A stretch of 64,000 bases of DNA from assembly GCA_002356455.1 (NCBI GenBank), contig AP017970.1:1-64000 (forward strand), given 5' to 3'. Position numbers and translations under genes: made by a program. The DNA comes from Fusobacterium varium (GTDB lineage Bacteria > Fusobacteriota > Fusobacteriia > Fusobacteriales > Fusobacteriaceae). Of this stretch, positions 23,892-61,407 are shown one piece after another (position 1 is the stretch's first letter; each line of letters begins with the position of its first letter). Below the pieces are notes generated by a model. It saw only the letters and a program-made list of their open reading frames with translations, had not been told where the DNA came from and made no database searches.

Positions 23892-23999
23892 ATGCGTTTT
23901 ATTACAATGTTTTTCATATTTATAGTAGTTTTAGCAGTAATAGATACAGTAAGAAGAATAAAGATAGCACAAATAAAGAGGGGGAGAAAGAAAAAATAA
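23892..23999 (+). CDS. Tiny basic membrane peptide
   Basis: A 35-aa ORF with an excellent ribosome site (AAAGGAGGTC, 7 nt before the ATG). It has one hydrophobic helix (ITMFFIFIVVLAVIDTV) and a strongly basic tail (RRIKIAQIKRGRKKK). It ends where the convergent toxin-like module A terminates. The function is unknown; it might be a transfer-operon membrane peptide. Confidence 0.5.
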   Translation: MRFITMFFIFIVVLAVIDTVRRIKIAQIKRGRKKK

Positions 24000-24029: not shown

Positions 24030-24119
24030 CTATTTGTTCTTATACCACCACCAACCAATAATGAAGAAAGCAATTGCAATTCCTCCATGAATTGAAAGTG
24101 TGTTGACATAAATGTACAT
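24030..24119 (-). CDS. Candidate type I toxin peptide, module A
   Basis: A 29-aa hydrophobic peptide starting MYIYVNTLSIHGGIAIA, with a membrane core AIAFFIIG and an aromatic-basic end WWWYKNK. GGAGGT stands 6 nt before the ATG. The peptide of module B is identical at 25 of 29 positions, and synonymous-looking differences between the two genes suggest that the protein is conserved. Its size, single helix, own terminator and adjoining antisense-like RNA match type I toxins. It is not recognisably Hok, Fst/Ldr, TisB or Ibs. Toxicity is inferred. Confidence 0.7.
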   Translation of the reverse strand: MYIYVNTLSIHGGIAIAFFIIGWWWYKNK

Positions 24120-27201: not shown

Positions 27202-27291
27202 CTATTTGTTTTTATACCACCACCAAGCAATGATGAAGAAAGCTATAGCTATTCCTCCATGAATTGAAAGTGAATGAATATAGATGTACAT
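27202..27291 (-). CDS. Candidate type I toxin peptide, module B
   Basis: A 29-aa peptide nearly identical to that of module A: MYIYIHSLSIHGGIAIA, then FFIIA and WWWYKNK. AGGAGGT lies 6 nt before the ATG. Several codons differ only at third positions from module A, as expected of selection on the peptide. It is a single membrane helix with an aromatic, basic C-terminus. Two copies of one toxin-like gene in separate gaps of the same operon suggest independent retention. Toxicity is inferred, not shown. Confidence 0.7.
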   Translation of the reverse strand: MYIYIHSLSIHGGIAIAFFIIAWWWYKNK

Positions 27292-32980: not shown

Positions 32981-33244
32981 TTAATAATGATTGAAATAGG
33001 CAAATCCGAGTACTCCAAAAACGAAAATTAAATAAATTACAAGCAATATAGCAAAGATTACGAGATAAGCTATTAAAAAATTTTTTAAGTTTTTGTTTGT
33101 TTTATCAGAAACTAACCATATAATCCACATTACTATATTTACAATAGGAATTATCATTATTATGTGTATTTTTAACCAATCTTTTATTCTTAAAACTTTT
33201 TCATTTTCTTTCACTTTATAATTGTTTATATCCATATTTTCCAT
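32981..33244 (-). CDS. Small two-helix membrane protein, paralogue of 61198-61407
   Basis: An 87-aa protein with two hydrophobic helices separated by SDKTNKNLKNF. It shares the pattern IIPxxNIxMWxxWL, then TNxNLKNxLI, with the protein at 61198-61407, so the two are paralogues. AAGGAG precedes the ATG. The family is not recognised; both lie alone beside replication or decayed regions. Confidence 0.7.
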   Translation of the reverse strand: MENMDINNYKVKENEKVLRIKDWLKIHIIMIIPIVNIVMWIIWLVSDKTNKNLKNFLIAYLVIFAILLVIYLIFVFGVLGFAYFNHY

Positions 33245-36544: not shown

Positions 36545-36571
36545 TGAGAGTAATACTTTTAGTATTACTCT
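36545..36571. terminator. Hairpin between two minus-strand genes
   Basis: GAGAGTAATACT/AGTATTACTCTC stem followed on the plus strand by CTTATTTTT. It lies just beyond the stop of the pseudogene and may act on either strand. Confidence 0.5.
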
Positions 36572-36579
36572 CTTATTTT

Positions 36580-37091
36580 TTATCTATATAAAATATTTGG
36601 TAGTTGGTTTAAAGAAACATTATTAAATTCAATATTAACTTTATTATTTTTAAAATATTTAATATCATACAAGTCTTTGTCTAAACTTTTTCCATTAAGT
36701 AAAATTTTTATATATCTATCTTTTTTTATTGAGTAAAATTTAATTCCACCTCTTTGAGCAAATCCTCCTAAAATTTCTACTCTATCAATATCTGAATGAA
36801 ATTTATCAGAAATTTGAGAACAGTTTCCTAGCTCTTGAATGATAATCTGACCTTGTAGTTTACGATAATTGTATTCTTGTTGTATTAAGGAAGATGGAGC
36901 TATTTCTTTATATTCATTTTCAGGAAGAATATTATCAATATTTTCTTCTTTATTGTGTAAAATTATATAGTAGTAATTTTCTAAATATTTAACTGTGTAT
37001 ATAGCTTCTTTATGATAGAATTTTCTCTCATAAAAATAGCTATAACATCATGTTTCAGACTATCAGCTTCTTTTGTTCTGTACCATTTCAT
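36580..37091 (-). pseudogene. Frameshifted hypothetical gene
   Basis: From ATG (37089-37091, AAGGAG upstream) the frame reads KWYRTKEADSLKHDVIAIF and then stops early. Continuing in another frame gives a clean run (YERKFYHKEAIYTVKYLE, later FAQRGGIKFYSIKKDR, ending QLPNILYR). Adding one T to the run of five T in the ATTTTTATG stretch (about 37030) restores a single ~170-aa frame. The deletion is either real, a slipped-strand switch or a sequencing error. The family is unknown. Confidence 0.7.
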
Positions 37092-37266
37092 TTTTACCAC
37101 TCCTTATTTTTTTATTTTTTAAAACTATATGTTTTTTTTGAGCCTGAAAAAGATCTTTTATCTTTTAATTTTTTCAATGCTATATAAATCTAAGTAAAAA
37201 TTTTTTATTCTTTTGCCAATTTCCATATAGTTCTATGTGTTTTCTCCGTCGCCTTGAAATCCAACA

Positions 37267-37392
37267 AGCAAATTTGGAAAAAATAAAGTCAAAATTTCCG
37301 CAGGAACAAAAAATAAAAATTTTATAAGCTACAGAGTGGCCAAGTAAAAGTTTTATTTTTTGCTTGATTTTTACTTTATTAAAAATTTGCTA
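37267..37392. repeat. Large nested inverted repeat
   Basis: Outer arms 37267-37295 and 37366-37392 pair imperfectly over ~25 bp. Inner arms 37308-37324 and 37345-37361 pair over 17 bp with one mismatch, around a loop with GCTACAGAGTGGCCAAG. No ORF is inside. It could be a structured RNA or a single-strand origin. The surrounding gap 37092-37690 otherwise holds only the leader of the peptide gene at 37691. Confidence 0.4.
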
Positions 37393-37463
37393 AGATGAAA
37401 GGCAGCGAGGGAGAGATAGAACTGTAAGGAAATAAAGAAGAAAAATAAGAACTTAGAGCAGCA

Positions 37464-37491
37464 TTGAAAAAATTTTAGATTATTTTATAAA
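37464..37491 (+). promoter_or_regulatory. Promoter of module D peptide
   Basis: TTGAAA (37464-37469), 16 bp, TATAAA (37486-37491). The expected transcript begins at the inverted repeat GAATCTTAGTATA (37501-37513). Confidence 0.5.
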
Positions 37492-37500
37492 AGATTTAAG

Positions 37501-37628
37501 GAATCTTAGTATAATAAAGTATAGGAAGAAAATTAATTATATAATTTAAAAAAAATTAGCTCATAGACTATAAAAATAGACATAATATAAGTGAGATGAA
37601 AATTTATATTTATACTGAGATTCTTCCT
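37501..37628 (+). promoter_or_regulatory. Folded leader of module D peptide
   Basis: GAATCTTAGTATA (37501-37513) pairs with TATACTGAGATTC (37611-37623) with one G-U. The adjacent AGGAAGAA (37523-37530) can pair with TTCTTCCT (37621-37628). The two pairings compete for the same 3' arm, which suggests a switchable leader. Confidence 0.45.
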
Positions 37629-37690
37629 AAATAAAATTTAAAAAGAAGGTATTGAAAATAGAAAAACTAAATATGAACGGAGGTGAGAAA

Positions 37691-37780
37691 ATGAAAAAGT
37701 TAAAATTTATACTAAACCATATTTTTTTACCTATTATAACAAGTTTAATAGGAGGTTATATTTTACTTATTATGTTATAG
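37691..37780 (+). CDS. Candidate Fst-like type I toxin peptide, module D
   Basis: A 29-aa hydrophobic peptide: KKLKFILNHIFLPIITSLIG and then GYILLIML. A basic start, a Pro-Ile motif followed by Gly and one membrane helix recall Fst/Ldr-type plasmid toxins, although the usual charged tail is missing. The ribosome site CGGAGGTGAG is very strong. An in-frame ATG six codons upstream would bury that site. Its own promoter, long folded leader and downstream hairpin suggest a self-contained toxin-like unit. No antisense RNA was pinned down. Confidence 0.5.
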   Translation: MKKLKFILNHIFLPIITSLIGGYILLIML

Positions 37781-37839
37781 GAAACTGAATTTATTTAGCT
37801 ATTTCAATTAAAGGAGAAATAATGAATAAAAAAATAAAA

Positions 37840-37875
37840 AGTAGGAATGAATTTTATTATATTCCTACTTTTTTA
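37840..37875. terminator. Bidirectional terminator after module D
   Basis: AGTAGGAAT/ATTCCTACT stem (37840-37848/37861-37869) with A-rich left and T-rich right flanks, just before the left end of the IS element. Confidence 0.75.
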
Positions 37876-38005
37876 TTGTATAAAAAAACCACTTGCTAAG
37901 CGAGTGGTACAAAAAAGCCGGAAGGCTATGCTTAGAAAATAAAAGCTCCTTTGATATAATTAATTAGGTTTGCCGGCCGATTAACTAATCAAAGGAGGTC
38001 ATAAA

Positions 38006-38467
38006 ATGTATGACAATAATAGTCTATCACATATAACATGGAATTGTAAATATCATATCATATTCGCACCAAAATATAGAAGGCAGGTAATATATGGAAA
38101 AATCAAAGGAGATATAGGGCAGATATTAAGAAAACTCTGCGAATTTAAAGGAGTAGAAATAATAGAGGCTAATGCCTGTAAAGACCATATACATATGTTG
38201 GTAAGTATACCTCCGAAAATAAGCATATCAAGTTTTATGGGATATTTGAAAGGGAAAAGTTCATTGATGATATTTGATAAACATGCAAATTTAAAATATA
38301 AATATGGGAATAGACATTTTTGGTGTAGAGGATATTATGTTGATACAGTAGGAAGAAATAAAGAAAGGATCGCAAAATATATAAGAGAACAGTTGCAAGA
38401 AGATATAGCAAATGATCAATTGACATTGAAAGAGTATATAGATCCTTTCGGAGAAAAAACAAACTAA
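38006..38467 (+). CDS. tnpA: IS200/IS605-family Y1 HUH transposase TnpA
   Basis: A 153-aa transposase. KYHIIFAPKYRRQVIYG is the usual start, DHIHMLVSIPP holds the HUH motif, and the GYYVDTVGRN segment has the catalytic tyrosine. Full length for the family and apparently intact. It transposes single-stranded DNA, often at replication forks. AAAGGAGG lies ahead of the ATG. Confidence 0.95.
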   Translation: MYDNNSLSHITWNCKYHIIFAPKYRRQVIYGKIKGDIGQILRKLCEFKGVEIIEANACKDHIHMLVSIPPKISISSFMGYLKGKSSLMIFDKHANLKYKYGNRHFWCRGYYVDTVGRNKERIAKYIREQLQEDIANDQLTLKEYIDPFGEKTN

Positions 38468-38471
38468 AGCA

Positions 38472-38570
38472 CACCAGCTACTTAAGTAGCTGAATGAAGA
38501 ATTACGCGGTTGGCAAACCATTCAGTAAGGCTTAAGCCTAAGCTAGTACCATACCCTTATAGGGTGGAGC
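38472..38570 (+). other. Structured right-end segment of the IS
   Basis: About 100 bp between the tnpA stop and the terminal hairpin contain the palindrome CAGCTACTTAAGTAGCTG and GGCTTAAGCC. In relatives that carry tnpB this zone encodes the guide (omega) RNA scaffold. Here tnpB is absent, so a remnant or a relaxed right-end structure is possible. Confidence 0.35.
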
Positions 38571-38597
38571 AAACCACCACTTGAAGTGGTGGTTTGT

Positions 38598-39013
38598 GAT
38601 TATTTGTATGAAAGTTTCTTCTATTCTATAAAGATGGTTACTACCTTCAAGCGGACCTATTAAATAAAATTTATTATCTTTTTTATAGATATATCTCATA
38701 TTGTAAGGAAAATTTCGTAATTTTTTTCAAGGTCTTTTATGCTTTGAAGCCAAAATAAATCAGGATTTTTATTATATGAATGTTCACAAATGCTATATTC
38801 AATAATATCATATTGAATGATAATTACTGATAAAGCAAAAAAATGTCTCATATGGAAAATATAGTGGAATTTCCTTAGAACCAACTTTTGAAAAAGGAAA
38901 AATAACATAATATTCTTCGTTTTTCTCTACACATTTTGGCTTTTTCAATATCCATGGTTCACCATTTTTTATATACTTTTCTTTAAGATAATTTTTTCAA
39001 CAATATTATTCAT
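38598..39013 (-). pseudogene. Decayed gene truncated by the IS element
   Basis: Starting at ATG (39011-39013), protein-like text continues through at least three frames: IKNGEPWILKKPKCVEKNEE, then YDIIEYSICEHSYNKNPDLF, then KKDNKFYLIGPLEGSNHLY. The text ends at the right end of the IS. The product is unknown. No continuation was found on the other side of the IS, so a deletion probably accompanied insertion. Confidence 0.65.
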
Positions 39014-39034
39014 TTGAAATTATCTCTTAATTAT

Positions 39035-40003
39035 TTATATCTCAAATTGAGGATATATTTTAGTGATATTTTCTTCTTCAATACCAATATACTTTAATGT
39101 TTGTTCTGCTGAAGAGTGATTAAAAGCTTTCATTAGAAGTGCAATATTTAAAGTTCCTTTATATACATGATATCCCCATGTTTTTCTTAGAGAATGTGAT
39201 CCAATAGGATATTCAATACTAAGCATATCACGTAGCTTATGAAATTCTTGGCTAACTCCATTAACACTAATAGGACTATCAATTTTATGTTTGGTATTGT
39301 AACGTGAAAGGCTCTTAAATATATAACCTTCTTTTGTAGAAAAACCTATAGACTTATAATAAGCTTTTAATTCTTTAATAGCTTTTTGACAAGTCTTATT
39401 AAAAGCAATAGTTCTAATCTTCTGAGTTTTCTTTTCTTTTATAGTAACTTCCCAGTTAGGATTAATCATTTCAAATCTTAGTTGAGCTAGATCAGAAATT
39501 CTAAGTCCTACATTTACCCCAATATTAATAAAATTAAGGAAACTAATTTTATTAATCTCTCCCAGATACTTTCTAATATTTTCTAAATCTTTTTCTTTTA
39601 GTCTTTTTACTTCTTGTCCTTTTTGATTTTGATTCATTGGTAAAACTCTCCCTATAGAATAATAATATTTTTCTGAATGGGTATCATAAATAGCATTTGT
39701 GAAAAATCCCATTTGAAATATTATATCATGTAACTGGTAAAAAAAATAGCTGTATATAACAGTTGAAAAATCAAAAAAAATACAGATTACCTCAATATAG
39801 TCAATTATGTTTATACTTTTATTCTTTAGATACATAAGTTGCAAGGCATACCCTAGTTGATGAGAAGGTTTCTCCAATTTTTTTATTCTTAAAATTTCAC
39901 TTTTTGAAAGGATAAAATGGGTATTTAAATTTTTTTCGTTAACTAAAAAATTTATATTCTCTTCATTTTCCTTCTTAGAGAGAATTGTATTTCTATATTT
40001 CAT
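39035..40003 (-). CDS. Tyrosine recombinase with a Tn3-transposase-like N-terminal segment
   Basis: A 322-aa integrase. Catalytic residues are Arg168 (VGLRISDL), Lys193 region (KKTQKIRT), His270 and Arg273 (GSHSLRKTWGYH), His296 (FNHSSAEQT) and Tyr305 (LKYIGI). Residues ~30-60 (FILSKSEILRI, then SHQLGYALQLMYLK) look like the DUF4158 start of Tn3-family transposases instead of a usual arm domain. Its ATG overlaps the resolvase stop by 11 nt, so both are made together. It likely resolves multimers or moves a module. Confidence 0.85.
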   Translation of the reverse strand: MKYRNTILSKKENEENINFLVNEKNLNTHFILSKSEILRIKKLEKPSHQLGYALQLMYLKNKSINIIDYIEVICIFFDFSTVIYSYFFYQLHDIIFQMGFFTNAIYDTHSEKYYYSIGRVLPMNQNQKGQEVKRLKEKDLENIRKYLGEINKISFLNFINIGVNVGLRISDLAQLRFEMINPNWEVTIKEKKTQKIRTIAFNKTCQKAIKELKAYYKSIGFSTKEGYIFKSLSRYNTKHKIDSPISVNGVSQEFHKLRDMLSIEYPIGSHSLRKTWGYHVYKGTLNIALLMKAFNHSSAEQTLKYIGIEEENITKIYPQFEI

Positions 40004-61197: not shown

Positions 61198-61407
61198 ATG
61201 AACACCGAAATAAAAGATTTGTTGAGAATACTTGTAGTAACAATAATTCCTACAATAAATATAATAATGTGGTTTAAGTGGTTAATTTCAAAAAATACAA
61301 ATTTAAACTTAAAAAATTATTTAATATCAATATTGATAATTACAATGTTATGGTTCTTTTTATGGTTTGGAATTTTAGGAATCTTAATGATGATTGATCT
61401 TTATTAG
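61198..61407 (+). CDS. Small two-helix membrane protein, paralogue of 32981-33244
   Basis: A 69-aa protein with two hydrophobic helices. IIPTINIIMWFKWLIS and TNLNLKNYLIS align with the protein at 32981-33244. TTAGGAGG is 6 nt upstream of the ATG. The function is unknown. Confidence 0.65.
   Translation: MNTEIKDLLRILVVTIIPTINIIMWFKWLISKNTNLNLKNYLISILIITMLWFFLWFGILGILMMIDLY

What the first reader, a model, noticed from the sequence alone, without database searches (positions are those of the whole stretch)
37464..37875. A fourth toxin-like peptide gene with a switchable leader
At 37691 a 29-aa hydrophobic peptide with a very strong ribosome site follows a ~190-nt leader with two mutually exclusive long-range stems. 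It recalls Fst/Ldr toxins (Pro-Ile, Gly, one helix). It sits next to the replication/partition block, where an addiction module would be expected.
Basis: inference. Interest (0 to 1): 0.6.

Follow-up and report, generated by a model that had tools for sequence, protein, structure and literature searches.

The report
Orphan silenced small membrane-peptide gene
On a Fusobacterium-type plasmid there is a small gene for a 29-residue membrane peptide whose messenger RNA looks folded so that it is hardly translated, as in known plasmid "addiction" toxins, but no relatives and no antitoxin RNA could be found, so its toxin role is unproven.

Summary
The observation largely holds. At 37691-37780 (+) a 29-aa hydrophobic peptide follows an eight-base ribosome site, and a 14-bp terminator hairpin stands behind it. 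The leader has a strong 5'-terminal helix (37499-37525/37603-37625; duplex -20.5 against -9.0 in shuffles, 0 of 1000). The start is the third most closed of 50 chosen gene starts, behind two conserved 29-aa peptides of the same plasmid, and fourth of 50 in an unselected list. The "switch" is weakly supported: the second stem is about 5 kcal/mol worse and neither stem changes access to the start. Fst/Ldr membership is not supported: no Pfam hit, no tryptophan or charged tail, no PxxxG, no convergent antisense RNA. No relative turned up in any collection searched, and no antisense promoter exceeded chance. It is not a fourth copy of the conserved family at 24030 and 27202. Best reading: an orphan type I-toxin-like, self-silenced mRNA on a plasmid; antitoxin, transcription and toxicity are not shown.

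The parts
37464..37491 (+). possible promoter TTGAAA-16-TATAAA; start about 37498
   Evidence: read by eye; the best site with its -35 at 37464 scored 5.7, below the mean best of shuffles, 8.0; weak
37499..37525 (+). 5' strand of the 5'-terminal helix (stem A)
   Evidence: duplex -20.5 against -9.0 +- 2.5, 0 of 1000 shuffles; real-window control
37603..37625 (+). 3' strand of stem A; overlaps the 3' arm of stem B (37621-37629)
37522..37530 (+). 5' arm of the alternative stem B, 9 perfect pairs
   Evidence: about 5 kcal/mol less stable than A
37679..37686 (+). ribosome-binding site GGAGGTGA, 4 nt before ATG
37681..37732 (+). hairpin 37681-37693/37720-37732 that closes the ribosome site and start codon, -10.8 kcal/mol
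   Evidence: as closed in 0.5% of 400 synonymous-codon and 0.5% of 400 codon-order shuffles
37691..37780 (+). 29-aa hydrophobic peptide gene
   Evidence: chance test
37822..37899 (+). second short ORF with ribosome site AAAGGAG that runs through the terminator into IS200; probably not a gene
   Evidence: its start region resembles ordinary gene starts no better than shuffles
37836..37873 (.). terminator hairpin with a T run on each strand
   Evidence: z -5.5, 0 of 300 shuffles for 37834-37876; symmetrical palindrome
37876..38605 (+). IS200-like insertion (Y1 transposase 38006-38467); left end approximate
   Evidence: 98% copy on contig C2; PF01797; weak STnc490 match at 37887-37995

Best explanation
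A short plasmid mRNA (about 37498-37875) encodes a 29-residue single-helix membrane peptide with a KKLK start. Translation is held off in cis by a hairpin between the ribosome site plus ATG and codons 10-14, and the extreme 5' end is tucked into a long helix that would stabilise the mRNA. This is the build of type I toxin mRNAs, nearest in plan to those with long leaders and a closed ribosome site (tisB, zorO, shoB) and to the two closing structures of Fst RNA I. Most likely it makes a membrane-active peptide only when the RNA is processed or unfolded, and may serve plasmid maintenance. Shown by computation: ORF, ribosome site, hairpins, terminator. Inferred: transcription, membrane insertion, toxicity, and an antitoxin RNA, which was not found.
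For: Peptide plus ribosome site far above chance. Start closure ranks third of 50 hand-chosen starts, behind only the two conserved peptides at 24119 and 27291, and fourth of 50 unselected ORFs with a site; only 0.5% of synonymous or codon-order shuffles are as closed. 5'-terminal helix. Terminator. The implied 193-nt leader is long against a median of 39 nt in F. nucleatum (PMC11005410, passages). For many type I toxins the ribosome site is sequestered and translation needs processing (PMC4147584, passages).
Against: No relative found: own genome, 98 Fusobacteriota genomes, plasmids, phages, viral and genome contigs. No antisense promoter above chance; no complementary stretch in the window above shuffles. 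Promoter weak. Folding z-scores of larger stretches are modest: -1.3 for 37498-37690 and -1.3 for 37640-37800. It lies among decayed genes.
Confidence: 0.45

Rival explanations
1. An ordinary small membrane protein gene of the plasmid whose translation is damped by its own hairpin, with no antitoxin and no killing role.
For: Same facts on ORF, ribosome site and hairpin; no antisense RNA signal.
Against: The closing hairpin and 5' helix would be unusual for a plain housekeeping peptide; other gene starts of the window are mostly more open.
Confidence: 0.27
2. A remnant or chance ORF: the N-terminal membrane anchor of a lost protein, left in a decaying stretch between two broken genes, a palindromic element and IS200.
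For: Neighbours 36560-37100 and 38600-39030 on the minus strand read as broken frames; no conservation; in 98 genomes the other matches to the site-plus-motif pattern that have a long in-frame product are starts of long membrane and other proteins.
Against: Intact ribosome site, stop, terminator and closing hairpin beyond chance.
Confidence: 0.2
3. A true par/Fst-type module whose convergent antitoxin gene was cut off from the shared terminator by the IS200 insertion.
For: 5' helix, closed ribosome site and two-way terminator match three listed RNA I features (PMC7472228); IS200 sits directly behind the terminator.
Against: Beyond IS200 lies a broken protein gene on the minus strand, with no repeat of the toxin region above chance (35% of shuffles as good) and no leader-terminator direct repeat above chance; Fst signature residues missing; no Pfam hit.
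Confidence: 0.08

Closest known systems
Fst/par of pAD1 (Fst/Ldr family)
   Same: short hydrophobic peptide on a plasmid, helix at the extreme 5' end, stem-loop over the ribosome site, two-way terminator
   Different: no convergent antisense RNA or direct repeats found; no tryptophan or charged tail; P-I-I-T-S instead of PxxxG; no Pfam hit
tisB/IstR-1, zorO/OrzO, shoB/OhsC
   Same: long leader, closed ribosome site, peptide of similar size (ZorO is 29 aa, PMC8309996 passage)
   Different: no divergent antitoxin RNA complementary to the leader found; no family match in Pfam or NCBIfam; those are chromosomal in E. coli
The MYIY...WWWYK peptides of Fusobacteriota (24030-24119, 27202-27291 here)
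   Same: 29 aa, strong ribosome site, most closed starts of the window
   Different: those have a leader inverted repeat ending at the ribosome site in 14 of 14 sites and a nested terminator-like hairpin in 12 of 14; this gene has neither and no visible sequence relation

Membership tests
Fst/Ldr family | Pfam/NCBIfam profile match | tested here: not met
   0 families at E up to 10; PF13955 not over cut-off anywhere in the own genome
Fst/Ldr family | conserved tryptophan between helix and charged C-terminus | tested here: not met
   sequence has no W and ends YILLIML; feature from PMC7472228. The tryptophan is a valine in Fst pAD1 itself
Fst/Ldr family | P/D/S/TxxxG(C) motif in the helix | tested here: inconclusive
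   PxxxG absent (PIITS); TSLIG and SLIGG fit T/SxxxG but are easily met by chance (motif from PMC7472228)
par (Fst) locus | helix sequestering the extreme 5' end | tested here: met
   if transcription starts near 37498
par (Fst) locus | ribosome site closed by an intramolecular stem-loop | tested here: met
par (Fst) locus | bidirectional terminator | tested here: met
   hairpin with T run on both strands
par (Fst) locus | convergent promoters and antitoxin RNA II | tested here: not met
   no minus-strand promoter above chance in 37450-37990; IS200 and a broken gene beyond the terminator
par (Fst) locus | direct repeats DRa/DRb | tested here: not met
   best direct repeat, leader against terminator, reached by 39% of shuffles
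type I toxin-antitoxin (any) | antisense antitoxin RNA | tested here: inconclusive
   no complementary stretch in the window better than shuffles; only RNA-seq can settle it
type I toxin-antitoxin (any) | toxicity of the peptide on expression | not testable with these tools
   needs a bench test
MYIY peptide family of this plasmid | leader inverted repeat abutting the ribosome site | tested here: not met
   3' strand of the 5' helix ends at 37625, ribosome site starts at 37679; family pattern in 14 of 14 sites

The most novel reading that the evidence does not exclude
A plasmid toxin mRNA lineage that is silenced in cis alone: the coding sequence carries its own anti-ribosome-site stretch (codons 10-14) and the 5' end is locked, so that no antisense antitoxin is needed and activation depends on RNA processing.
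Probability: 0.1. Interest if true: 0.6.

Novelty: new member of a known kind. Interest (0 to 1): 0.3.

Why it matters
The six literature searches run here listed no paper whose title or abstract start describes type I toxin-antitoxin genes of Fusobacteria. If the peptide is toxic, this would add an orphan toxin on a Fusobacterium-type plasmid and a case where silencing is written into the coding sequence. It also points to the better-supported MYIY family of the same plasmid.

Tried and rejected
Homology. Weak DNA matches in 12 genus genomes: I read 15 of 17 non-self loci; by eye all looked like chance AT-rich or gene-start matches. Weak protein matches at E up to 1 in 98 genomes: I read 10 of 24 non-self loci, none a short ORF with a ribosome site at that place; most of the other 14 lie in long open frames. 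Pattern scans: 36 genome contigs and 47 viral contigs; in-frame products read, none a similar short peptide. Pattern in 98 genomes: 19 matches, only this locus gives a 29-aa peptide. Sensitivity limit: 29-aa queries are weak in tblastn. The MYIY peptide, used as a positive control, was found in 9 of 98 genomes but also gave nothing in the plasmid collection, so "no match" there is weak evidence.

Antitoxin. Minus-strand promoters, repeats with both flanks and window-wide complementarity all stayed at chance level.

Switch. The first constraint run failed to enforce stem B (identical energies); it was repeated correctly. Rfam: nothing at gathering threshold; weak hits near the locus are not meaningful except STnc490 over IS200.

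The gene list (50 starts) was chosen by hand; one search repeats the test on 50 unselected ORFs.

Full report
Setting. The window is bases 1-64000 of a 68,063-bp contig (C3) of a 4.12-Mb, 3-contig genome. Plasmid relatives of its ParA are nearly all in Fusobacteria (14 of 15 records, mostly Cetobacterium and Fusobacterium). The contig carries a Rep3-type replication gene and a ParA gene and reads like a conjugative plasmid by its large transfer-like genes (my reading, not tested).

The gene. ATG 37691 to TAG 37780 gives MKKLKFILNHIFLPIITSLIGGYILLIML. The ribosome site GGAGGTGA lies 4 nt upstream. With a site of 8 bases and a hydrophobic stretch, the shuffled window gives 0.017 such ORFs per shuffle (60 shuffles); 0.05% of 2000 local shuffles give one with a site of 7. 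An in-frame ATG at 37673 exists, but the ribosome site lies inside that extension, so 37691 is preferred.

The leader. The 5' helix pairs 37499-37514 with 37610-37625 and, after a 4-nt bulge, 37519-37525 with 37603-37609. Its duplex energy is -20.5 against -9.0 +- 2.5, reached by 0 of 1000 shuffles. Of 5508 real 193-nt windows of both strands, 2.3% reach it; of 1468 with under 24% G+C, 0.27%. Closure of the start is much the same when the leader is trimmed away (0.16-0.22). So the two-stem switch does not appear to control translation by itself.

The closing hairpin. 37681-37693 pairs with 37720-37732, within the codons for His-Ile-Phe-Leu-Pro, at -10.8 kcal/mol, with near-certain pairing of most of the ribosome site and the ATG. 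In 400 synonymous-codon shuffles and in 400 codon-order shuffles, 0.5% were as closed over the start. Among 50 hand-chosen gene starts it ranks third, after the two conserved 29-aa peptides at 24119 and 27291; among 50 unselected ORFs with a ribosome site it ranks fourth. Against this, whole-stretch folding scores are only mildly better than shuffles (z -1.3 to -2.5).

Ends. The promoter is weak by score, though in F. nucleatum the -35 box is weak in general (PMC11005410, passages). Its TTGAAA lies in the right end of a 308-bp imperfect palindrome (37167-37474; 66% identical to its own reverse complement). The terminator 37836-37873 is strong and reads both ways. Directly behind it lies an IS200-like element that has a 98% copy on contig C2, also directly behind a terminator-like hairpin. 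Beyond it, 38600-39030 reads as a broken minus-strand gene.

Relatives. None in the own genome (one other hit, E 0.57, inside a 450-aa frame), in 61 family genomes at E up to 0.05, in 98 phylum genomes above noise, in 72,556 plasmid records, in 50,697 phage records, in viral contigs or in genome contigs. The control search with the MYIY peptide found 14 sites in 9 of 98 genomes, so the genome search can find a 29-aa family; the same control found nothing in the plasmid collection.

Antitoxin. No minus-strand promoter in 37450-37990 exceeds the mean best of shuffles (7.2 against 8.0). No repeat or complementary stretch in the flanks or the window exceeds shuffles.

Known kinds. The Fst review (PMC7472228; abstract, passages and the section "Regulation of Toxin Expression") lists convergent promoters, shared terminator, direct repeats, 5' upstream helix, ribosome-site stem-loop, and in the peptide a tryptophan and charged tail. 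Three RNA features are met; the convergent promoter, direct repeats, tryptophan and charged tail are not. Long-leader systems such as tisB, shoB and zorO (PMC4147584 and PMC8309996, passages) share the closed ribosome site and long leader, but need a complementary RNA that I did not find.

Verdict. A well-formed but orphan gene with the build of a type I toxin mRNA; its toxin role is a fair guess, not a finding. It is a different kind of gene from the conserved MYIY peptides of the same plasmid.

Noticed in passing
window 24030-24119 (-) and 27202-27291 (-), with leaders to about 24280 and 27465: A conserved 29-aa peptide family (MYIY...GG..IAFFI.WWWYK.K): 14 sites in 9 of 98 Fusobacteriota genomes. 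In 14 of 14 a leader inverted repeat with different arms ends at the ribosome site, 12 of 14 have a nested terminator-like hairpin and 13 of 14 (by eye) a CCTC just behind the stop that could pair with the ribosome site. No Rfam gathering match (weak only in 77) and no NCBIfam or PHROG match. This looks like a genuine silenced-peptide family and deserves its own study.
   Followed up: partly
window 23892-23999 (+): 35-aa peptide MRFITMFF... convergent to the MYIY gene at 24030; the same neighbour pair is on contig C2 of the same genome (L190).
   Followed up: partly
window 37167-37474: 308-bp imperfect palindrome with 15-bp perfect ends, no second copy among 12 genus genomes; G-U type mismatches are few (4 of 36), so it looks DNA-level, perhaps a MITE-like remnant or a centromere or origin structure.
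   Followed up: partly
window 37876-38605 and contig C2 48297-49033: Two 98% identical IS200-like copies each sit directly behind the T run of a terminator-like hairpin.
   Followed up: partly
window 39035-40003 (-): ORF joins an N-terminal DUF4158 match (recalled as the Tn3-type transposase N-terminus) to a phage-type integrase domain, next to a serine resolvase; probably a fused remnant.
   Followed up: no
window 32981-33244 (-) and 61198-61407 (+): Two small membrane ORFs (87 and 69 aa) look like paralogues by eye (IIP..NI.MW..WL.S..TN.NLKN).
   Followed up: no
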